Source: Bifidobacterium choladohabitans
Lineage (GTDB): Bacteria; Actinomycetota; Actinomycetes; Actinomycetales; Bifidobacteriaceae
Direction of reading: 5' to 3'
NCBI RefSeq assembly: GCF_016102005.1
Contig: NZ_JACFPL010000001.1
Coordinates: forward strand, 744,001-808,000
Length of the DNA: 64,000 bases
Part shown: piece by piece, positions 27,322 to 46,189 of the stretch
How positions within the stretch are numbered: the first letter of the stretch is position 1
How the letters are laid out: the number at the start of each line of letters is the position of its first letter
Notes under the pieces: model-generated
What the model was told of the DNA's origin: nothing
Databases searched by the model: none
What the model saw: the letters and a program-made list of their open reading frames with translations, nothing else
Program-made: the position numbers and the translations under genes

Positions 27322-27867
27322 TCAGGACGACCTGTCCGCCGAAGCCTCCAGCCGGGCCAAATCCAGGGCCTTGTTGAAGGCGTCCGAGGTCCAGCTGGCC
27401 CCAGCCACCTTGTCCACCTTGAGGTCCTTGAGCGGGCGTCCCTGGACTACTCCGGGCACAGCCCGAGCGAAACGTTCCATGTGGCCGCGCGAGATGGGCG
27501 AATCCGAATGCCCCTGGACCTGGACCCTGGTCACCTGGCCTCCCGACAGGTCCAGGTCCACATCGATTCTGTCAGCCCCGTCATGCCCGTATTTGCCCGT
27601 CAGGGCGTAGGTACCATCGTGATAGTTGCCCGTGTCAGCCGGTGCGGTCGGCAGTCCATCACGGGAGACGGCCGCAGGCTTGCCCTCGCCCGCAGAGCCG
27701 GCTCCCGACTCTGGTGCAGAGCTGGACTCTGCGCCCGATCCGGCGAACTCGTCGTCCATGGGCTTGGCCTCCTGGCTTCCGCAGCCGCCCAGGAGGGAGC
27801 CGACCGCCACCAGGGTCGCCAGGGTTGCCGAGGCCGTGGCCAGTCCCCGGGATTTGCTTTTGGCCAT
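27322..27867 (-). CDS. FMN-binding domain lipoprotein
   Basis: Extracytoplasmic lipoprotein with one FMN_bind domain, 181 residues from ATG 27867 (GGAGG upstream). A signal sequence ends in the lipobox LLGGC (about residues 25-29), then a Ser/Glu-rich linker, then the domain from about residue 80 (YHDGTYALTGKYGHDG, VDLDLSGGQVTRVQVQGHSDSP). The covalent attachment segment near the C-terminal third reads VAGASWTSDAF, resembling the Ser/Thr-containing motif that ApbE flavinylates by joining FMN through a phosphoester; the Thr of WTS is the likely acceptor. It is the last gene of the FTR1 iron operon and could carry electrons to extracellular ferric iron. An apbE gene lies at 45221. Confidence 0.9.
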   Translation of the reverse strand: MAKSKSRGLATASATLATLVAVGSLLGGCGSQEAKPMDDEFAGSGAESSSAPESGAGSAGEGKPAAVSRDGLPTAPADTGNYHDGTYALTGKYGHDGADRIDVDLDLSGGQVTRVQVQGHSDSPISRGHMERFARAVPGVVQGRPLKDLKVDKVAGASWTSDAFNKALDLARLEASADRSS

Positions 27868-27868
27868 T

Positions 27869-28738
27869 TCAGCGCCCTCCTTTTCCATCAATGGCCGATC
27901 CCGGCAGGGAGCCGCCGGTCTTGGCCGTCTTGGTGGGGTCATGGAAGCCCACCGGAATATCCTGGTCCCCTGAATCGACAGGAGCCCCGCTGAAGGCCGG
28001 ACGGCCTCCGGCTGCCAGGTAGGCCCGCTTGGCCTCCTCATCATTCCACTGCTCGCCGGCCAGCACACCGTGGTTGAGCATGATCTCCCGCTGGGCGCAG
28101 GAGGCCACCAGGGCATCATGCGTGACCACAATCAGGGAGGTTCCCTGGTCATGCAATTGCCGGAAGAGATCCAGCACGATCCGCTCGTTGGCCTCATCCA
28201 GGTTGCCAGTGGGCTCGTCAGCCAGAATCAGCTTGGGCTCGTTGATCAGCGCCCGGGCCACGCAGACCCGCTGCTGCTCGCCGCCCGAAAGCTGACTGGG
28301 CAGATGGCGGGCCCGATCCGCCAGACCCACACGGTCCAGGGCCTTCATGGCCTGGTCCTCGTCCACCACCGAGTGGTAGTACTGGGCAACCATGACATTC
28401 TCCAGGGCGGTCAGATGCGGGACCAGATAGAACTTCTGGAAAACCAGACCGATTACGTTCTTACGCACATCGGCCAGCTGGGACTGGCTCAGATCCTCCA
28501 GCGGCCGCCCCTGCAGTCGGACCGAGCCCCGGCTGGGGGTGTCCATGCAACCCAGAATGTTCATCAGCGTGGTCTTGCCTGAGCCGGAGGACCCCACCAC
28601 GGCCAGCCACTGGCCCTGCGGGACGCTCAGATTCAGGTCGTCCAGGGCGTGCAGATCGCCGTAAATCTTGGAAACATGGTCCAGGTCCAGCAGCATGCCG
28701 CCGCCCGACTGGAACTCGCTCGCCTTTGCCTGCGTCAT
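27869..28738 (-). CDS. MacB/LolD-type ABC transporter ATP-binding protein
   Basis: ATPase of a type VII (MacB-like) ABC system, 289 residues. Walker A GSSGSGKTT followed by LMNILGCMDTPSRG, signature LSGGEQQRVCVA and Walker B LILADEPTGNLDE (extended Asp-Glu-Pro-Thr-Gly-Asn-Leu-Asp is diagnostic of the MacB/LolD group). Two starts are possible: ATG 28744 overlaps the permease stop (ATGA) but has the ribosome site almost touching it, while ATG 28738 has GGAGG 7 bases away and is preferred. The C-terminal 65 residues after the ABC core are hydrophilic and Pro-rich. It works with the two FtsX-like permeases encoded just upstream; energy use on extracytoplasmic iron or flavin proteins is an inference. 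Confidence 0.92.
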   Translation of the reverse strand: MTQAKASEFQSGGGMLLDLDHVSKIYGDLHALDDLNLSVPQGQWLAVVGSSGSGKTTLMNILGCMDTPSRGSVRLQGRPLEDLSQSQLADVRKNVIGLVFQKFYLVPHLTALENVMVAQYYHSVVDEDQAMKALDRVGLADRARHLPSQLSGGEQQRVCVARALINEPKLILADEPTGNLDEANERIVLDLFRQLHDQGTSLIVVTHDALVASCAQREIMLNHGVLAGEQWNDEEAKRAYLAAGGRPAFSGAPVDSGDQDIPVGFHDPTKTAKTGGSLPGSAIDGKGGR

Positions 28739-28740
28739 TG

Positions 28741-29931
28741 TCATTCCTCCCTCAAAACCAGGGCCGGGTCGATACGCGAAGCCCGGAGGACCGGCCGAAT
28801 GGATGCGATCATGGATATGGCCACGCTCAACAGGACCGTGCCCAGGGCCAGCCACCAGTTGAAGCCCAGCGGCCGCTGGAAGACGGATAGGCAGAGCAGC
28901 CGGGCGAAGCCATAACCCAGGGCGGTGCCGATCAGACCTCCAGCCAATCCGTAGCAGGCCGACTCCGCCAGAAACTCCATGGCTATCCCCCGCGAGGAGG
29001 CACCCAGAGCCTTGCGCAGGCCGATCTCGCTGCGCCGTTGGGAGACGATGGAGGCCATGGTGGTCCCCACGCCCACAAAGGTCAGGACCAGTACCACCAC
29101 CGAAACCAGCCAGAAGAGCGACTGGAGCATGGCGATGGTATGGCTGTCGCCCGCCGTAATCCTCGTGACCGGCCGGGCCTTGACCCCCATGGAGGTCATG
29201 TCGTTGATGCTGGCAGCGATGGTCTTCAGCCCCGAGGTCATGGTGTTGACCGAGTATTCGATGACATCGGTGCCCCGCTTGGCCCCGGTCAGGAGCTCCA
29301 GATCGGCCAGGTCGGCGTAGATTATCCGATCCTCGGGACCTCCGGTATCGACGATGCCTCCCACACGAAAGTCTCGCCCCTGGCCTCCGCCTTTGCCTGT
29401 GCCGGTGACCTGGCTGGCCGGGTAGCCGATGGTCATCCGCTTGCCGGTGGTCAGCCCCAGCGAATCCGCCAGATCCCGCCCCACCATGACCGAACCCGGC
29501 CGGGGCCAGGAACCCTCCACACTCCAGTGACGATTGAGCTGACGCACCTGGTCGGGGTGGATGCCGGCCATTACGCGGGCGCCGGCATTGACCTGCACCG
29601 TCTCATATCGATAGGTGGCGTACCGCGCCGGGGCCTTGGCGGTCACCATGTGGGTGGTATGGTCCACCATGCCCTGTTCGATGCCGGCGGACCGGTTGTC
29701 CCCCTGGATGGGCGAAACGACCAGGTTGGCCCCGTAGGAACGCATCTCCTGGTTGATCTGCCTGGGAGCCTCGATGCAGACCGCCGCCAGGCAGAAGAGG
29801 GTGGCGGCACCCACCAGGGAGGCCACCACGGCCATCAGGGCCCGGCCCCGACGACGGAAGACGGCCCCGAAGAGCATGGTCAGGAACATGCGGGTGTTGG
29901 TCATATGGCTCTTATGGCGATCAGCGGCCAT
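28741..29931 (-). CDS. FtsX/MacB-family ABC permease in iron operon (second)
   Basis: Membrane protein of 396 residues with the MacB pattern: one N-terminal transmembrane helix (ALMAVVASLVGAATLFCLAAV), a large extracytoplasmic domain of about 210 residues, then three C-terminal helices with the FtsX-type core SQRRSEIGLRKALGASSRGI (about 306-325). Its start overlaps the upstream permease gene by 11 bases. Together with the ATPase it would form a mechanotransmitting ABC complex acting on proteins outside the membrane rather than a classical importer. Confidence 0.9.
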   Translation of the reverse strand: MAADRHKSHMTNTRMFLTMLFGAVFRRRGRALMAVVASLVGAATLFCLAAVCIEAPRQINQEMRSYGANLVVSPIQGDNRSAGIEQGMVDHTTHMVTAKAPARYATYRYETVQVNAGARVMAGIHPDQVRQLNRHWSVEGSWPRPGSVMVGRDLADSLGLTTGKRMTIGYPASQVTGTGKGGGQGRDFRVGGIVDTGGPEDRIIYADLADLELLTGAKRGTDVIEYSVNTMTSGLKTIAASINDMTSMGVKARPVTRITAGDSHTIAMLQSLFWLVSVVVLVLTFVGVGTTMASIVSQRRSEIGLRKALGASSRGIAMEFLAESACYGLAGGLIGTALGYGFARLLCLSVFQRPLGFNWWLALGTVLLSVAISMIASIRPVLRASRIDPALVLREE

Positions 29932-31231
29932 GAAGCACCTCCGCCGGCCGAAGCCGCAGAATCGATCTGATGGACGAGATGGACGCCAGCAGCACAGTCA
30001 GGGCCAGCAGCACGAAGACCAGCACGAAGACCATGGGGCGCATGGTGATGCCCGATCCGAAGACCACCCTGCCCACAATCTGAGCCACCCCGGAGCCCAG
30101 CAAGGCACCGACCAGAGCCCCGGCCAGGGCGATCAGGGCCGTCTCGGCCAGCACCAATCGGGATACAGCCCCGTCGGTGGCGCCCAAGGCCTTGAGCAGG
30201 GCGAACTCCGAGGACCGCTCGGATATGGAGGACGCCATCAAATTAGCCACGGCGATGGCTGCAGCCAGCAGGCTGAGCACGGTCATCAGGATCATGACCG
30301 CCTGGGTCTTTTGCAGAACATCGCCCTGCAGGGCTGCCACCTGTCTGACCTGCTTGGCCATGGACCCGGGGATGGCCTCCTCGATCTGGTAAGCGATGGA
30401 TGAGGGGTAGGCCGTGCAGTACCAGGTCTCCCACTCGTCCTGGGAGAGGGCAGCTGGGTTTCGTGCGGCCTTGCGGGCCAGGTCGTTCTCGGGCGTGGTC
30501 AGAGCCTTGACCTCCACCTGGTCGATCTGATTGGTCAGGCCGGACATCTCCTGCAACGGCCTGGTAGGCAGGTAGAGGGAGGAGGCGTCAGAATCACCGG
30601 AGTCGAAGATGCCCACAATGGTGACGGTCCGCTGTTGATCACCCAGACCGACCTTGACCTGGTCACCAACCTGACGGCCGCCCAGTCGTGCAGCCAGCTC
30701 TTTGCCCATCATGGCCTCGGTTCGGCCACCGGATCCAGCCTTGTCCCTGGGCCAGCGTCCTTGAACCTTCCACCAGGGCCTAAGACCTTTGAGACCTGCA
30801 GTACTGCTCTCGCCGCTGTCTACCTTGACGGTCCGGCCGAACCAGGTACCTACCAGGGGGGCACCGACCTGGTCCACAGTGCCACGAAGATCCAGGCGGG
30901 GAGCGAAGTCGGTGATGTTGTAGGCCCAGAAGATGGTCTTGATCCTGGGCACCTGGGACTCCTTGAGGAAGGCGGTTGGCGTTGACTCATCGCCTGAGGG
31001 GCTGCCCTCCTGGTCGCCGTAGAGGTCGGAGACCACGGCATCAGCCTTGGCTTGGACCGTGATGTTGGACCCGTAGGTGGACAGTTCCGCGTTGAGCTTG
31101 TCGCCGACGTCAAAGACCACCCCCAGCATGGCCGTAGCCACGCAGGCCGACAGGCAGACTGTGACGGCGATGAGCATTCTTCGCCCGAACTGGCGGCTGA
31201 ATGACCGCAGCATCATTCGCATGAAGAACAT
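29921..31231 (-). CDS. FtsX/MacB-family ABC permease in iron operon (first)
   Basis: 436-residue permease of the same MacB-like fold: N-terminal helix (RRMLIAVTVCLSACVATAMLG), a periplasmic-type domain of about 250 residues, and three C-terminal helices with SERSSEFALLKALGATDGAVSR as the FtsX core. ATG 31231 has AAGGAG 8 bases upstream; the open frame to 31282 runs into the DUF2318 gene. It differs enough from the next permease to suggest a heterodimer. Paired FtsX-like permeases with this ATPase also accompany p19/FTR1-type iron loci in other bacteria, as far as I recall. Confidence 0.9.
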   Translation of the reverse strand: MFFMRMMLRSFSRQFGRRMLIAVTVCLSACVATAMLGVVFDVGDKLNAELSTYGSNITVQAKADAVVSDLYGDQEGSPSGDESTPTAFLKESQVPRIKTIFWAYNITDFAPRLDLRGTVDQVGAPLVGTWFGRTVKVDSGESSTAGLKGLRPWWKVQGRWPRDKAGSGGRTEAMMGKELAARLGGRQVGDQVKVGLGDQQRTVTIVGIFDSGDSDASSLYLPTRPLQEMSGLTNQIDQVEVKALTTPENDLARKAARNPAALSQDEWETWYCTAYPSSIAYQIEEAIPGSMAKQVRQVAALQGDVLQKTQAVMILMTVLSLLAAAIAVANLMASSISERSSEFALLKALGATDGAVSRLVLAETALIALAGALVGALLGSGVAQIVGRVVFGSGITMRPMVFVLVFVLLALTVLLASISSIRSILRLRPAEVLHGR

Positions 31232-31253
31232 ACCAACCGCTCCTTCCCTTTTT

Positions 31254-32528
31254 TCAGCTCTTGAAGTGTGAAGACAGAGCATCCAGGTCGGCGGTGCTGA
31301 TCAGTATGGCGCCCCGGCCGGTCTTATAGGGCAGAGGGACGGGATTGCAGCCGCCCTTGAACCCGATGGTGGCCAGGTTGATGGCTACGTCGCACTTCTT
31401 GCAGATGATCTTGCCGTCTTTTTCGTAATAGCCTGCATCCCCGCAGTTATCGCAGGCATCCAGCCCGACTCCGTAGGCTGCGCCATTCTTGCGGATGATG
31501 ATAAAGCGCATCTCGGTGCCGTCCTTGGCCCGGTAGCTGAATCGATGCAGGTGGCCATCCTCCACCTGGGAGAAGCGGATGGTGGCCGTATCGGCAGTCA
31601 GGGAATACCGCTCCGGAGGTGAGAGCACGGGAACCTTGTGGGCCTGGGCCGTGCCCACCGTCAGGACCAGGGTGACGCCGATCATGGCCACCAGGCTCCA
31701 GACCGCCGATGCCAGGGCCCTTCGGCGGAAGGCCCGGTGGCTACGGTCTTCCGCTGTGGAGGCTCCGGTCACCGGCATGCGCCAGCCTGCAACCAGACAG
31801 GCCAGGACTGGAATGATGAAGACCAGCACCTGGGCAAGAACCAAGGTCAGGTCGGCGTTGTAACCCAGGGCCATGACCCGGAAGGCCCAGCCGTGCAGAA
31901 GAACCAGGCCGGTGGTCTGCATCAGGGCCACCAGGGCCACGATGTGCCGGACCAGCAGCAGGACCACCATGAGCAGGGCGGCCAGGCGGAAGGCTATCCG
32001 GGGGCAGGAGGTATGCATGGTCCTCAGAATGGCGGCCACCGTCACAGCGGCGGCAAGGCCGAGCAGGAAGCCCAGGGCCCGCAGGAGCATGGCCGAGGTC
32101 AGCACAGGCTCCCCCGGCTCCACAAAGGCCGTAAGCTGCAGGATGACATCAGGCAGGGCACGGAAGGTGGTCAGGGCTATGGCCAGGGCCGCCAGGGCGT
32201 TGGCCAGATCCATGACCCAGGGGTGCCGATGCCAGTCCGAGACCAGCCGGTCGGCGGCCAGCACCACCGCAATGGCCGCCAGATCGGTCAGAACGCAGGC
32301 TACCAGGGTCGGGTAGTTGACCATGGTCCGGCGGTTGATGATCACGGTGGCGCGCAGGAGGGCGAAGACCAGCGCCCCCAGCACGCCGACCCCCAGGCCA
32401 ATCAGTCGCCATGAGGAGGAACGAGGCCGATCGCGGCCCTCGCCAATCCCCAGAAGCACGCTGAAAACCATGACCAGGAGGGCCGGGGCCAGCGTCCCCG
32501 GCAAGACCGTGACAAATTGCTCAAGCAT
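31254..32528 (-). CDS. DUF2318 domain membrane protein (predicted redox component)
   Basis: 424 residues. The first 290 are mostly hydrophobic, with eight or so membrane segments; the last 140 form a DUF2318 domain with cysteine pairs in GLDACDNCGDAGYY and IICKKCDVAINL, followed by GGCNP, a pattern suited to a metal, Fe-S or haem cofactor. DUF2318 proteins are known as companions of FetP/P19 and FTR1 iron uptake genes. Its position between the FetP gene and the ABC permeases and its membrane anchoring suggest that it passes electrons across or along the membrane to iron or to the FMN-binding lipoprotein. The exact cofactor is unknown. It starts 13 bases after the FetP stop. Confidence 0.87.
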   Translation of the reverse strand: MLEQFVTVLPGTLAPALLVMVFSVLLGIGEGRDRPRSSSWRLIGLGVGVLGALVFALLRATVIINRRTMVNYPTLVACVLTDLAAIAVVLAADRLVSDWHRHPWVMDLANALAALAIALTTFRALPDVILQLTAFVEPGEPVLTSAMLLRALGFLLGLAAAVTVAAILRTMHTSCPRIAFRLAALLMVVLLLVRHIVALVALMQTTGLVLLHGWAFRVMALGYNADLTLVLAQVLVFIIPVLACLVAGWRMPVTGASTAEDRSHRAFRRRALASAVWSLVAMIGVTLVLTVGTAQAHKVPVLSPPERYSLTADTATIRFSQVEDGHLHRFSYRAKDGTEMRFIIIRKNGAAYGVGLDACDNCGDAGYYEKDGKIICKKCDVAINLATIGFKGGCNPVPLPYKTGRGAILISTADLDALSSHFKS

Positions 32529-32541
32529 GGTGCATAGCAGC

Positions 32542-33165
32542 TTACCACTGGTGGGGCGTGTAGTCCCAGTCCCAGCTGACCACGATGGGCTCGGTCCAGA
32601 AGTGTCCCTTCACGCCGGTCTCCGGGTCGACGTGCAGCATCCAACCCTTCTTCTCCGGGGAGTCGATGGAATAGGTCAGCTTGTAGGATCCGGCCTTCTC
32701 CATTTTGATGTTGGCTCCGTAATGCGGACCATCCGAGGCGTTCATCTGCATGAAGGTGCCGGACTGCTTGTCATTGGGGTCATCCTTGTTCTGGATGGTG
32801 TAGTTGACGGTCAGATCCGGAACGAACTCACCCTTGGCATAGCCCAGGTTGTTGTTGGGCAGGGCGTGGATATCGGCCTCCAGGTGCAGGCTGGCATCCG
32901 CCGCCTTCAACCCCATGGATGCAGGCTCCATGTCGATGGGCTGGAAGAAGACCGTGCCGATGCTCAGGGGGCCCTTCTGCTGGTCGTCGGGCGGGATGGG
33001 AATCTCCTCGAACCCGGCTCCCTTGCCCGCCGAGGACTGGGAGGCGCCGGAAGCCTCAGGCGCGGGGGCCTCACGGGTACCCGATCCGCCGGAGCCGCAC
33101 CCCGCCAGGGCCAGGGTGCCTGAGAGCACCAGCGCGACCAGGGCGGTCAATTGTCTCTTCTTCAT
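32542..33165 (-). CDS. FetP/P19/Tp34-type iron-binding lipoprotein
   Basis: Extracytoplasmic high-affinity iron-transport protein of the Pfam 'Fe2+ transport' (P19/Tp34) family, 207 residues. Signal peptide ends in lipobox LAGC (about 19-22), then a Ser/Ala/Glu linker, then the immunoglobulin-like domain: Met and Asp in PIDMEPASMG, LHLEADIHA with two His, FMQMNASDGPHYGANI with further Met and His, the usual metal ligands, and GHFWTEPIVVSWDWDY at the end. ATGA overlap with the FTR1 stop shows tight coupling, as in FetMP and P19-FTR1 systems. Such proteins bind iron and sometimes copper next to the permease. Confidence 0.92.
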   Translation of the reverse strand: MKKRQLTALVALVLSGTLALAGCGSGGSGTREAPAPEASGASQSSAGKGAGFEEIPIPPDDQQKGPLSIGTVFFQPIDMEPASMGLKAADASLHLEADIHALPNNNLGYAKGEFVPDLTVNYTIQNKDDPNDKQSGTFMQMNASDGPHYGANIKMEKAGSYKLTYSIDSPEKKGWMLHVDPETGVKGHFWTEPIVVSWDWDYTPHQW

Positions 33166-34976
33166 GATTGTCCTTCGCTCTTTGGTGTTTGCATGGATGC
33201 CGTGACCTCAGAGGGCACAGCCCCTTCGGCGGCCTTCTCGGTTTCCGTCCGATGGACGGTTGCCGACGGCGACCCGCCGGAGTCCTGATTCGACCGCGAC
33301 CGCTCCTGCTTGTGCAGGCGGTGGGTCGACACAATCGCCAGCACGACCACGACCAGGGCCGCCAGGATCTGGGCGCCGATGGTCTGCGTGTAGGGATACA
33401 GCCCGATCCAGTCGCTGGTGGGCACACCGGGCAGGTAGGTGGCCGGCACCAGGTCGCCCTCGATCAGGGCATGGACGCCGCCCCCGGCGAAGATGACCAC
33501 CATGACCGCCATGAGCAGGCTGGTGATGATGAAGAAGGGCCGGATGGGAATCTTGACCGAGGTGAAGCGGATGAGCACGAAAACGATGACCAGGACCACG
33601 GCGGCAGCCGCAAAACCGGTCCAGATCTCCCGTCTGCCACCAGGGGCCATGGCGAAGATGGCCTGGTAGAACATGACCGTCTCAGCCCCCTCCCTGAAGA
33701 CCGCCAGGAAGGAGAGCAGAGCCAGGGAGATCACGCTGCCCTTCGAGATGGCCGCCACCGTCCGGCTTTGAATGTAGTGGTTCCAGGATTCCACAGAGGA
33801 CTTGGACAACATCCAGTTGCTGGTGTAGAGCAGCATGAGCATGGCTACCAGGGCCACCACGCCCTCCAGGATCTCCTGCTGGGGACCGTTCCCGTTGAAG
33901 AGCAGGGTGAAGAGCAGGGCCACCAGCCCGCTGGCCACCAGACCTGCCGCAATGCCCCAGTAGATGTGCCGAACCTTGTCTTTATGGCCGGCCTTGACCA
34001 GGTAGGCGATGATGGCCGCCACCACCAGGATGGCCTCCAGTCCCTCCCTCAGCAGGACCACAAAGGCCTGGCCGAAGGCTGAGGTCAGGAAGGTCGTCCA
34101 CCCGTTGACCTGGTCCGCGGCGCCCCCATCCAGAATGGCTGCGTCCTCGACCAGCATGCTCTTCAGGTCGTTCACCAGGGTCTTGGCCGGCTTGCCTGCC
34201 ACCATGGCCATCCGGGTCTCCTTGAACTGGTATTCGACCTGGGAGACCCTGTTGCCGCTGATGGCGTTCATGACGTTCTTCTCGAAGCCCAGCTTTTCGT
34301 AATACTGGTAATAGGCCTTGTTGACCAGATCGGATCCCGCCTGGCCCTGCCCCTTGGATGCCTGGGCGAGCGCCTGATCCAGAATGGGCGTCATCTCGTG
34401 GGCCACCTGGGTCCAGGTCCGGTCGCCCTTGCCGTTGTTCCGATGCTTCTTGGCCGCGTCCAGCCTTCGACGGTCCGCCTTGATCTGCTCCCGCTGATCC
34501 TTGGCATACGCACGGGGATTGGCCAGCCCCTGGGTGGCATCCAGCTGGGTGGCCGCAGCGGACAGATCGGCCTTGAGCTTTTCGCTGCCCTGGGTCAGGG
34601 CCTGCCCGGCATCCGGGGCATAGGCCTGGCTCTGCAGGGCCTGGAACTGCCCGTCCAGGGCGTTGCGCCTGTCCTGCCCCAGGGTCGACCCCACCACCGA
34701 AACGAATCCGGAGCCCACGTAACCCACGTTGTAGGCCCCCATGAATTCCGAGGCCGCCCCGGCGCGATCCCCGCGGGCATAATCCTCACACCCTCGATCC
34801 AGCTGACGGGATACGGAACCAGCCACCTGGGTCCAGCTGTCATAATCCGTGGCTCCGCTCGCCGCCATGGCCGACTGCGGGGTCTGCAGGACCAGGAATA
34901 TCAGGGTCAGCAGCAGGCATGAGAGCAGGGAGCCAGCGGTCCTGGCCACTCGTGTCCTGCCGACCTGTGCAACCAT
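33162..34976 (-). CDS. FTR1-family iron permease
   Basis: 604-residue iron permease, first gene of the iron operon. Signal peptide of about 38 residues, then a 260-residue extracytoplasmic helical domain with two similar units (each beginning near W-T-Q-V-A, residues 48 and 188), then seven transmembrane helices with both REXXE iron-binding motifs: REGLE at 310-314 and REGAE at 428-432. The tail after about residue 545 is hydrophilic. ATG 34976 has AAGGAG 10 bases upstream. FTR1/EfeU/FetM proteins move iron after oxidation or reduction at the surface; gene order with FetP and DUF2318 resembles FetMP/P19 loci and the bfeUO-type locus I recall from Bifidobacterium breve. Confidence 0.94.
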   Translation of the reverse strand: MVAQVGRTRVARTAGSLLSCLLLTLIFLVLQTPQSAMAASGATDYDSWTQVAGSVSRQLDRGCEDYARGDRAGAASEFMGAYNVGYVGSGFVSVVGSTLGQDRRNALDGQFQALQSQAYAPDAGQALTQGSEKLKADLSAAATQLDATQGLANPRAYAKDQREQIKADRRRLDAAKKHRNNGKGDRTWTQVAHEMTPILDQALAQASKGQGQAGSDLVNKAYYQYYEKLGFEKNVMNAISGNRVSQVEYQFKETRMAMVAGKPAKTLVNDLKSMLVEDAAILDGGAADQVNGWTTFLTSAFGQAFVVLLREGLEAILVVAAIIAYLVKAGHKDKVRHIYWGIAAGLVASGLVALLFTLLFNGNGPQQEILEGVVALVAMLMLLYTSNWMLSKSSVESWNHYIQSRTVAAISKGSVISLALLSFLAVFREGAETVMFYQAIFAMAPGGRREIWTGFAAAAVVLVIVFVLIRFTSVKIPIRPFFIITSLLMAVMVVIFAGGGVHALIEGDLVPATYLPGVPTSDWIGLYPYTQTIGAQILAALVVVVLAIVSTHRLHKQERSRSNQDSGGSPSATVHRTETEKAAEGAVPSEVTASMQTPKSEGQS

Positions 34977-35068
34977 GGGTGATGATCTCCTTCGTCAGTC
35001 CCTCGTAATCGAACCTGCGAGAAACGAAGGCCGATTTGACAATTACTGAAAATCAATCTAGCTCAGGC

Positions 35069-35092
35069 ACAAGTGGAAAAACAGACTTGTTT
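35069..35092. promoter_or_regulatory. Candidate operator upstream of FTR1 iron operon
   Basis: An A+T-rich patch 92-115 bases before the FTR1 start holds overlapping inverted repeats: ACAAGT-N10-ACTTGT (35069-35090) and AAACA-GACT-TGTTT (35079-35092). It is in the right place for iron control but does not match a consensus I can name. Confidence 0.35.
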
Positions 35093-35135
35093 ATACCGTT
35101 TTGAAGCCATATAATGCGCCCGCGCCCGCAGATGG

Positions 35136-45220: not shown

Positions 45221-46189
45221 CTATGTGGACGGATGGATATTGGAGTCAGTGAAGAACCGACCTGGGAATTCGTCAGAGATCACGGCCTGGCGGTCGGCAT
45301 ACATCAGTGCACAGGAGAAGGAGAATCGGGTGGCCAGCGCATCCGGCGGCGTCAGGAAGAGGGCGGTGGCCAGACCGTCGGCCAGACCCGTGGGGTGTTC
45401 GTTGTTCTTCTCGTCAGTCACTACCCAGGAGGCCAGCACGCGGTCGACCGGACGGCCGTTGATGGCATCCAGGATGTGATGAAGGGCTGTCAGTCCGGCC
45501 GCCGCAGTCTCCTCGGACCGGTCGGCCCAATGGCGGCGACTGGGCGCCGAGGCGCACAGGGACCCATGGGACAGCCCGACCCGGCCCACGCCTGCAGACA
45601 GGTCAGCGGGATCCTCCATAGCGATGGAGACCGGGTGAGAGGTCCGCATACGCATGTCGCCACCGGCATCGATTAGATACTCTTCCACCCGAGGTTCGAG
45701 CAGGTCGGCAATCAGGTCTACCAGATAGCCCTTGCCGACCGCCCCGAAATCAAGGCTGACCGGTCCGGCAGTCATAAGGACAGCACCCTGACGTCTGAGG
45801 TCATCACCCCAGGTCGGTCGCCCATGAATCCGTCCCAGACGCCCGGCGGCGTCGGCCTGCAGCCGGAAAGTGGGCTGCCTGCCGTAGCCCAGACGAGTCA
45901 GGTCCTCGCCCACCATGGGGTCCAGGGCCCCTTCGGTGGCGCAATACAGCCTGTCATACAGATCAAAGAGCCCCTGACAATAGTCGGGAAAGACGAACCT
46001 GCCCCCATGAGTAGCCCGGGCCATTTGCGCAGGTATGGCATCCTGCCTGAACCGTGACAGGGCACGCTCGTAACCCTCGATCAGATCGGCGATGGCGCCG
46101 TGAAGCCGTTCTCCCAGAGGCTCGTCCGTGGAGATGATGATTCCCGTACCGACCGCCCCGGGGAAGGCGGCCAGGCAGGGCAGACCCAT
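45221..46189 (-). CDS. apbE: FAD:protein FMN transferase (ApbE family)
   Basis: Enzyme that attaches FMN from FAD to Ser/Thr of extracytoplasmic FMN-binding domains through a phosphoester bond. 322 residues. Family blocks seen: SLDFGAVGKGYLVDLIADLL, YLIDAGGDMRMR and DGLATALFLTPP near the C-terminus. Unusually, no signal peptide or lipobox is visible at the N-terminus (MGLPCLAAFPGAVGTG), so export route or cytoplasmic activity is unclear. ATG 46189 has GAGGAATCTCC upstream and lies 9 bases after the purA stop, so the two are one operon. The FMN-binding lipoprotein at 27322 is a candidate substrate. Confidence 0.9.
   Translation of the reverse strand: MGLPCLAAFPGAVGTGIIISTDEPLGERLHGAIADLIEGYERALSRFRQDAIPAQMARATHGGRFVFPDYCQGLFDLYDRLYCATEGALDPMVGEDLTRLGYGRQPTFRLQADAAGRLGRIHGRPTWGDDLRRQGAVLMTAGPVSLDFGAVGKGYLVDLIADLLEPRVEEYLIDAGGDMRMRTSHPVSIAMEDPADLSAGVGRVGLSHGSLCASAPSRRHWADRSEETAAAGLTALHHILDAINGRPVDRVLASWVVTDEKNNEHPTGLADGLATALFLTPPDALATRFSFSCALMYADRQAVISDEFPGRFFTDSNIHPST

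What the first reader, a model, noticed from the sequence alone, without database searches (positions are those of the whole stretch)
27322..34976. Seven-gene iron operon pairing FTR1/FetP with DUF2318, a MacB-like ABC complex and an FMN-binding lipoprotein
Seen: FTR1 permease with two REXXE motifs, FetP-type lipoprotein, cysteine-rich DUF2318 membrane protein, two FtsX-like permeases, MacB-type ATPase and FMN_bind lipoprotein, with overlaps or short gaps throughout. Known: FetP/P19-FTR1-DUF2318 loci import iron in other bacteria, and FMN_bind domains flavinylated by ApbE carry electrons outside the membrane. Inference: DUF2318 and the flavoprotein form a short extracytoplasmic electron path that changes iron redox state before FTR1 import, with the MacB complex acting on one of these proteins. 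Notable in a fermentative, haem-poor genus.
Basis: partly seen in the sequence, partly recalled or inferred. Interest (0 to 1): 0.85.

Follow-up and report, generated by a model that had tools for sequence, protein, structure and literature searches.

The report
Known bifidobacterial iron-uptake operon with flavin lipoprotein
A bifidobacterium close to Bifidobacterium mellis carries a seven-gene iron-uptake operon that is already known from relatives; comparing relatives and predicted structures suggests that two of its parts, a flavin protein and a cysteine-rich domain shaped like Rieske electron carriers, pass electrons while iron is brought in.

Summary
The operon is real, at the stated place, and known. 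It is bfeUO-sifABCDE of Bifidobacterium breve (Lanigan 2017), the FMN-protein version of FetMP-FetABCDEF (Liu 2018; Meheust 2021). Published B. breve mutants of all seven genes are chelator-sensitive; the thioredoxin/FMN swap of gene 7 is in print.

Added here: (1) ApbE, which attaches FMN, goes with the FMN lipoprotein SifE: of 133 operon-bearing Bifidobacteriaceae genomes, 116 have both and 17 neither, from two losses on the operon tree. The published B. breve apbE::Tn5 mutant resembles the sif mutants (ferrous chelators only); its authors read it as Fe-S repair. (2) This ApbE shows no signal peptide in 37 of 37 rows, although SifE looks exported. (3) The DUF2318 domain, folded alone (pLDDT 93), gives 50 of 50 listed VIA-align rows of Rieske fold, but has four Cys where Rieske proteins have two Cys and two His. 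Foldseek is weak and sequence methods give nothing.

Direction of flow, the DUF2318 cofactor and the MacB complex's role are open. 'Haem-poor' fits poorly: this genome carries cytochrome bd.

The parts
33162..34976 (-). FTR1 iron permease (BfeU/FetM), 604 aa, long N-terminal part before the permease, REXXE at codons 310-314 (34035-34049) and 428-432 (33681-33695)
   Evidence: PF03239 E 9.2e-41; motifs
32542..33165 (-). FetP/P19-type lipoprotein (BfeO), 207 aa
   Evidence: PF10634 E 3.8e-59; lipobox LALAGC by eye
31254..32528 (-). FtrD-like membrane protein (SifA/FetA), 424 aa: helical membrane part then C-terminal DUF2318 domain
   Evidence: PF10080 E 4.1e-31; model pLDDT 84.9
31257..31631 (-). 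DUF2318 domain, predicted Rieske-like fold; Cys359, 362, 376, 379 and 394 lie within 31347-31454
   Evidence: Domain model pLDDT 93.3; 50 of 50 listed VIA-align rows are Rieske-fold proteins; motif in 103 of 103 rows
29921..31231 (-). FtsX/MacB-type permease 1 (SifB/FetB); an upstream start at 31282 is possible
   Evidence: PF02687 E 2.4e-15, PF12704 E 4.8e-14
28741..29931 (-). FtsX/MacB-type permease 2 (SifC/FetC)
   Evidence: PF02687 E 2.9e-21, PF12704 E 8.4e-7
27869..28744 (-). MacB-type ATPase (SifD/FetD)
   Evidence: PF00005 E 7.6e-35
27322..27867 (-). FMN_bind lipoprotein SifE; proposed flavinylation Ser in AGAS at 27394-27396
   Evidence: PF04205 E 2.8e-5, over cut-off; AGASWT in 81 of 81 SifE rows
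45221..46189 (-). ApbE flavin transferase, the only PF02424 match in the genome, no signal peptide seen
   Evidence: PF02424 E 1.2e-29; ORF; N-terminus

Best explanation
This is a FetMP-FetABCDEF-type (bfeUO-sifABCDE) iron-uptake system. FetP binds iron outside the membrane and hands it to the FTR1 permease (roles known for the families). ApbE attaches FMN to the Ser of AGASWT in the lipoprotein SifE (inferred from co-loss and from published mutants). SifE exchanges electrons with the DUF2318 domain of FtrD, a Rieske-like fold whose two CxxC knuckles hold a metal or cluster (fold predicted, cofactor inferred), and that domain changes the redox state of the iron on its way from FetP to FTR1 (inferred). 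The MacB-type ABC complex does not import iron but drives a conformational step in FtrD or a lipoprotein by ATP hydrolysis (inferred from the family). The direction of electron flow is not settled.
Against: No sequence-level link between DUF2318 and Rieske proteins; shuffled and reversed profiles scored higher than the real pair. Foldseek gives no match at E <= 0.001, and by my count 31 of its 50 listed rows are not Rieske proteins. The Rieske ligand set is not kept. Two SifE losses are few events. In the B. breve table the ferrous-only pattern is not unique: all mutants came from a dipyridyl screen and several of other function grow normally in ciclopirox. No signal peptide is seen on ApbE in 37 of 37 rows, so SifE would have to be flavinylated before or during export. 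SifE is dispensable in 17 genomes, so it cannot be the only electron partner. C. jejuni FetE/FetF may be oxidases. Three known classes of membrane electron carrier were not found in the genome (PF01794, PF02683, PF03116), so the electron source or sink is unknown.
Confidence: 0.6

Rival explanations
1. The relay runs away from iron: ferrous iron on FetP is oxidised, electrons go to DUF2318 and then SifE, and FTR1 imports ferric iron, as yeast Ftr1 does with Fet3 (recalled).
For: sif mutants are hit by ferrous chelators and not by ciclopirox; C. jejuni FetE/FetF behave more like oxidases; REXXE FTR1 permeases are linked to oxidation (recalled); the genomes that lack SifE all have cytochrome bd, 17 of 17 against 22 of 116 with SifE, as if a respiratory sink made SifE dispensable.
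Against: Lanigan calls SifE a possible ferric reductase; Liu and Meheust suggest reduction; the 2023 model speaks of reducing power. The cytochrome bd link rests on two loss events.
Confidence: 0.4
2. The DUF2318 cysteines do thiol-disulfide chemistry and hold no metal; the fold resemblance says nothing about a cofactor.
For: The C. jejuni authors propose disulfides at the CxxC pairs; thioredoxins stand in place of SifE in most Proteobacteria examined by Liu; no sequence support for Rieske; some Rieske-fold proteins have no cluster (nitrite reductase small subunits, recalled; present).
Against: CxxC-x13-CxxC looks like two metal knuckles; a weak zinc-ribbon match is found in 42 of 43 members; the 50 listed VIA-align rows are of one fold.
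Confidence: 0.3
3. SifBCD is an importer of ferrous iron or a siderophore with SifA as binding protein, as proposed for B. breve.
For: The naming and phenotype in PMC5449479.
Against: Both permeases have MacB_PCD + FtsX domains, the mark of type VII ABC systems, which are not importers (recalled); SifA is a membrane protein with a DUF2318 domain, not a binding protein.
Confidence: 0.1
4. ApbE and SifE are lost together only because the genes are often neighbours, and ApbE has another substrate.
For: ApbE lies within 6 kb of the FtrD domain in at least 37 of 133 genomes; its lack of a signal peptide would suit a cytosolic substrate.
Against: In this window ApbE and SifE are about 17 kb apart with other genes between; the apbE mutant resembles the sif mutants in B. 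breve; the genome has one FMN_bind match.
Confidence: 0.12

Closest known systems
bfeUO-sifABCDE of Bifidobacterium breve UCC2003 (Lanigan 2017, PMC5449479)
   Same: Same seven genes and order; B. asteroides BAST_1624-1618 is listed in its Table 5
   Different: Two transcripts in B. breve. Here FetP and FtrD are 13 bp apart; by tblastn ends the distance is 16 in 10 rows, all of this clade, and 45-680 in the other 91 of 101 rows
FetMP-FetABCDEF of Campylobacter jejuni (PMC6083913, PMC10783030)
   Same: First six genes and order; DUF2318 with CxxC-x13-CxxC
   Different: Gene 7 is thioredoxin there, FMN_bind here; that swap is already described
P19-associated flavinylation clusters (Meheust 2021, PMC8238504)
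   Same: 260 P19 clusters with an FMN-binding gene, mostly in Gram-positive bacteria
   Different: [quoted passage not shown] SifE itself would not
Rieske [2Fe-2S] ferredoxins and cytochrome bc1 Rieske protein
   Same: Predicted fold of DUF2318
   Different: Four Cys in place of two Cys and two His; no sequence-level match

Membership tests
FetMP-FetABCDEF / bfeUO-sifABCDE system | FTR1 permease with REXXE motifs | tested here: met
   PF03239; two motifs; two or more in 99 of 100 FTR1 rows
FetMP-FetABCDEF / bfeUO-sifABCDE system | P19/FetP protein next to FTR1 | tested here: met
   PF10634 E 3.8e-59
FetMP-FetABCDEF / bfeUO-sifABCDE system | DUF2318 membrane protein, two FtsX-like permeases and ATPase in that order | tested here: met
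FetMP-FetABCDEF / bfeUO-sifABCDE system | Needed for growth under iron limitation | not testable with these tools
   Published for B. breve and C. jejuni, not seen for this species
ApbE-flavinylated FMN_bind protein | FMN_bind domain over the Pfam cut-off | tested here: met
   25.1 bits against 22
ApbE-flavinylated FMN_bind protein | [S/T]GA[S/T]-like acceptor motif (wording of PMC8238504) | tested here: inconclusive
   AGAS: GA[S/T] kept, first residue Ala; AGASWT in 81 of 81 rows, four of them repeats of the same records
ApbE-flavinylated FMN_bind protein | ApbE in the same genome | tested here: met
   113 of 113 operon genomes with a FMN_bind hit
ApbE-flavinylated FMN_bind protein | Exported ApbE for an exported substrate | tested here: not met
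   No lipobox and no strongly hydrophobic N-terminus in 37 of 37 rows; judged by simple measures, no signal-peptide program was at hand
ApbE-flavinylated FMN_bind protein | Covalent FMN | not testable with these tools
   Needs mass spectrometry
Rieske [2Fe-2S] domain (for DUF2318) | Rieske fold | tested here: met
   [not shown]
Rieske [2Fe-2S] domain (for DUF2318) | Ligand motif CxH ... CxxH | tested here: not met
   CxxC-x13-CxxC in 103 of 103 rows
Rieske [2Fe-2S] domain (for DUF2318) | Sequence homology to Rieske proteins | tested here: not met
   No Rieske match in PDB or Pfam searches; hhalign probability 0.17%
MacB-type (type VII) ABC complex | FtsX C-terminal + MacB_PCD permeases with ABC ATPase | tested here: met

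The most novel reading that the evidence does not exclude
DUF2318/FtrD carries a new variant of the Rieske fold, with an all-cysteine metal or [2Fe-2S] centre on the outside of the membrane, that works with interchangeable partners (covalent FMN mostly in Gram-positives, thioredoxin mostly in Proteobacteria) to change iron's redox state for FTR1, with a MacB-type ATPase powering the step; and the FMN partner is flavinylated in the cytosol before export.
Probability: 0.3. Interest if true: 0.75.

Novelty: already known. Interest (0 to 1): 0.45.

Why it matters
The FetMP-FetABCDEF system is widely conserved in bacteria, and in 2023 the function of FetA (DUF2318) was called not known and that of the ABC complex unclear. 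A Rieske-like fold for DUF2318 gives a concrete, testable cofactor hypothesis, and the link of ApbE to SifE reinterprets a published B. breve mutant and can be tested by mass spectrometry of one protein. A cytosolic ApbE serving an exported lipoprotein would widen how flavinylation is thought to work.

Tried and rejected
Sequence homology of DUF2318 to Rieske proteins: not supported. A PDB profile search up to E 10 gave four sequences, none Rieske. Pfam scans of 43 members gave FtrD-like in 43, a weak zinc-ribbon model in 42, and nine other families in 1 to 5 members each, none Rieske. hhalign against four Rieske ferredoxins gave probability 0.17% over 7 columns; its score of 11.2 was below the mean of 60 shuffled profiles (12.4) and below the reversed one (14.2). 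Only the fold supports the link.

Replacement of SifE by thioredoxin in SifE-negative operons: no thioredoxin-like ORF recognised by eye in the 10 of 17 loci whose downstream ORFs I listed; the other 7 were checked only for SifE.

Known membrane electron carriers: PF01794, PF02683 and PF03116 not found in the genome; NapH-like and PepSY-like were not searched.

Cytochrome bd and SifE loss: 17 of 17 against 22 of 116 looks strong but rests on two losses; kept only as a hint. An earlier look at a hand-picked 38 genomes is. In one search my pasted ApbE list missed one genome (124 for 125), so its ApbE counts are off by one; corrected. ApbE distances are lower bounds because the match list was cut.

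The hydropathy measure is rough: on SifE and FetP rows, as I cut them, it ran from about -0.5 to 2.8, so it does not pick out every signal peptide.

The consensus promoter scan found nothing. A conserved stretch upstream of FTR1 was not followed.
Full report
What is there. The window is part of a 2.08-Mb genome in 10 contigs. Its nearest named relative in my tree is Bifidobacterium mellis, 99% identical over 1345 columns of four operon proteins. On the minus strand, 34976 down to 27322, lie FTR1, FetP, an FtrD-like (DUF2318) membrane protein, two FtsX/MacB-type permeases, an ABC ATPase and an FMN_bind lipoprotein.

It is known. Lanigan 2017 (PMC5449479; passages, sections 12 and 19) describes the same genes as bfeUO-sifABCDE in B. 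breve, with transposon mutants, and lists B. asteroides BAST_1624-1618. Liu 2018 (PMC6083913; passages) and a 2023 study (PMC10783030; passages, and Discussion) describe FetMP-FetABCDEF in C. jejuni. Liu 2018 and Meheust 2021 (PMC8238504; passages) both note that gene 7 is mostly thioredoxin in Proteobacteria or Gram-negatives and an FMN-binding protein mostly in Gram-positives. Liu's figure includes B. kashiwanohense.

Flavinylation. The own genome has one FMN_bind match and one ApbE match, the latter in this window at 45221-46189. In 189 Bifidobacteriaceae genomes, FtrD is in 133, FMN_bind in 118 and ApbE in 125. Of the 118, 117 have ApbE; the exception, G052, has a SifE but no FtrD in the genome and no other operon gene within the 13 kb looked at. 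Of the 71 without a FMN_bind hit, 63 lack ApbE; the eight others are G006, G091 and G113 (below), G040 (a partial operon with ApbE, FTR1 and FetP), and G162, G164, G171 and G172, which lack FtrD. Of the 133 operon genomes, 113 have FMN_bind and all 113 have ApbE; in 111 the hit lies within 7 kb of FtrD and in two fragmented assemblies on another contig. Of the 20 without a FMN_bind hit, three have ApbE (G006, G091, G113), and all three have SifE by tblastn below the Pfam threshold; the other 17 have no ApbE, and in 17 of 17 loci no SifE was found at E <= 0.01 with five SifE queries. So SifE and ApbE agree in 133 of 133. The 17 are not independent: a quick tree of 94 operons needs two changes. 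Named members of the two SifE-less clades are B. aemilianum, B. bombi, B. bohemicum and a Bifidobacterium sp. ESL0784; Lanigan gives bumblebees as source of bombi and bohemicum, and B. aemilianum is from bees as I recall. The other rows are unnamed.

Among the 80 named loci, SifE was found in 75; four complete operons lack it (L086, L102, L118, L127) and L138 is cut by the contig end before the ATPase.

The published mutant. Table 3 of Lanigan 2017 gives, for 250 and 275 uM dipyridyl, ciclopirox and phenanthroline: sifA-D - - +++ -, sifE - - +++ +, apbE (Bbr_1825) + + +++ -, while bfeU and bfeO are - - - -. So apbE is milder than the sif genes in dipyridyl. All mutants came from a dipyridyl screen, and several of other function also grow normally in ciclopirox, for example mntH + - +++ ++ and Bbr_0514 ++ ++ +++ ++; by eye apbE and mntH are the strongest of these outside sif. 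The authors read apbE as Fe-S cluster repair. I read it as loss of SifE flavinylation. In the held library, four papers contain Bifidobacterium, ApbE and iron; I saw parts of two of the four, and those parts do not make this link.

An odd point. The ApbE shows no signal peptide: in 37 of 37 rows (two pairs being the same contig; the other loci do not reach ApbE or lack it) the stretch before the conserved start has no lipobox and a highest mean hydropathy of 1.55 over 14 residues. This is a rough measure, without a signal-peptide program. Stretches conserved in at least 90% of rows include LDFGA.GKG, AGGD and TALF, so it does not look like a decayed gene. Cytosolic ApbEs exist (PMC12052999, passages); the Klebsiella one named there serves a soluble fumarate reductase. 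SifE has a lipobox-like LLGGC. Either flavinylation precedes export or ApbE leaves by an unknown route.

Direction and source of electrons. The genome shows no match to PF01794, PF02683 or PF03116 but has cytochrome bd. Cytochrome bd is in 50 of 189 genomes, in 17 of 17 operon genomes without SifE and in 22 of 116 with it. This hints that a respiratory chain can replace SifE, but two losses cannot carry the claim. The ferrous-only phenotype of sif and apbE mutants fits oxidation of ferrous iron for FTR1 as well as reduction.

Transcription. Here FetP and FtrD are 13 bp apart; by tblastn ends the distance is 16 in 10 rows, all from this clade, and 45-680 in 91 others. B. breve has two transcripts. 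A single transcript here is likely but not shown. Separate transcripts in B. breve count against one obligate unit, and its bfe and sif mutants differ in phenotype.

Verdict. A known system, rightly recognised; the proposed electron path is plausible and gains two new supports, but its chemistry is untested.

Noticed in passing
G131:C1:161180-162096 and similar places in other genomes: Some Bifidobacteriaceae carry a second FMN_bind gene directly beside its own ApbE, apart from the iron operon.
   Followed up: no
L050 (G052:C72:34000-47000): A SifE-like gene with AGASWT, without FtrD or ApbE in the genome; the one exception to the SifE-ApbE rule.
   Followed up: partly
L051 (G112:C7:8500-20500): An operon in which FtrD and FtsX1 are missing between a FetP fragment and an FtsX2 fragment, while SifE remains and ApbE is elsewhere in the genome.
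   Followed up: no
window 34990-35130: A stretch upstream of FTR1 alike in most of the ten aligned sequences of this clade (TAAACAAGTCTG, GCTAGATTGATT; L072 did not fit), possibly a promoter or iron-regulator site.
   Followed up: no
G000:C6:210835-212232: Cytochrome bd oxidase subunit I in this genome; in the family it is in 50 of 189 genomes and in all 17 operon genomes that lack SifE and ApbE.
   Followed up: partly
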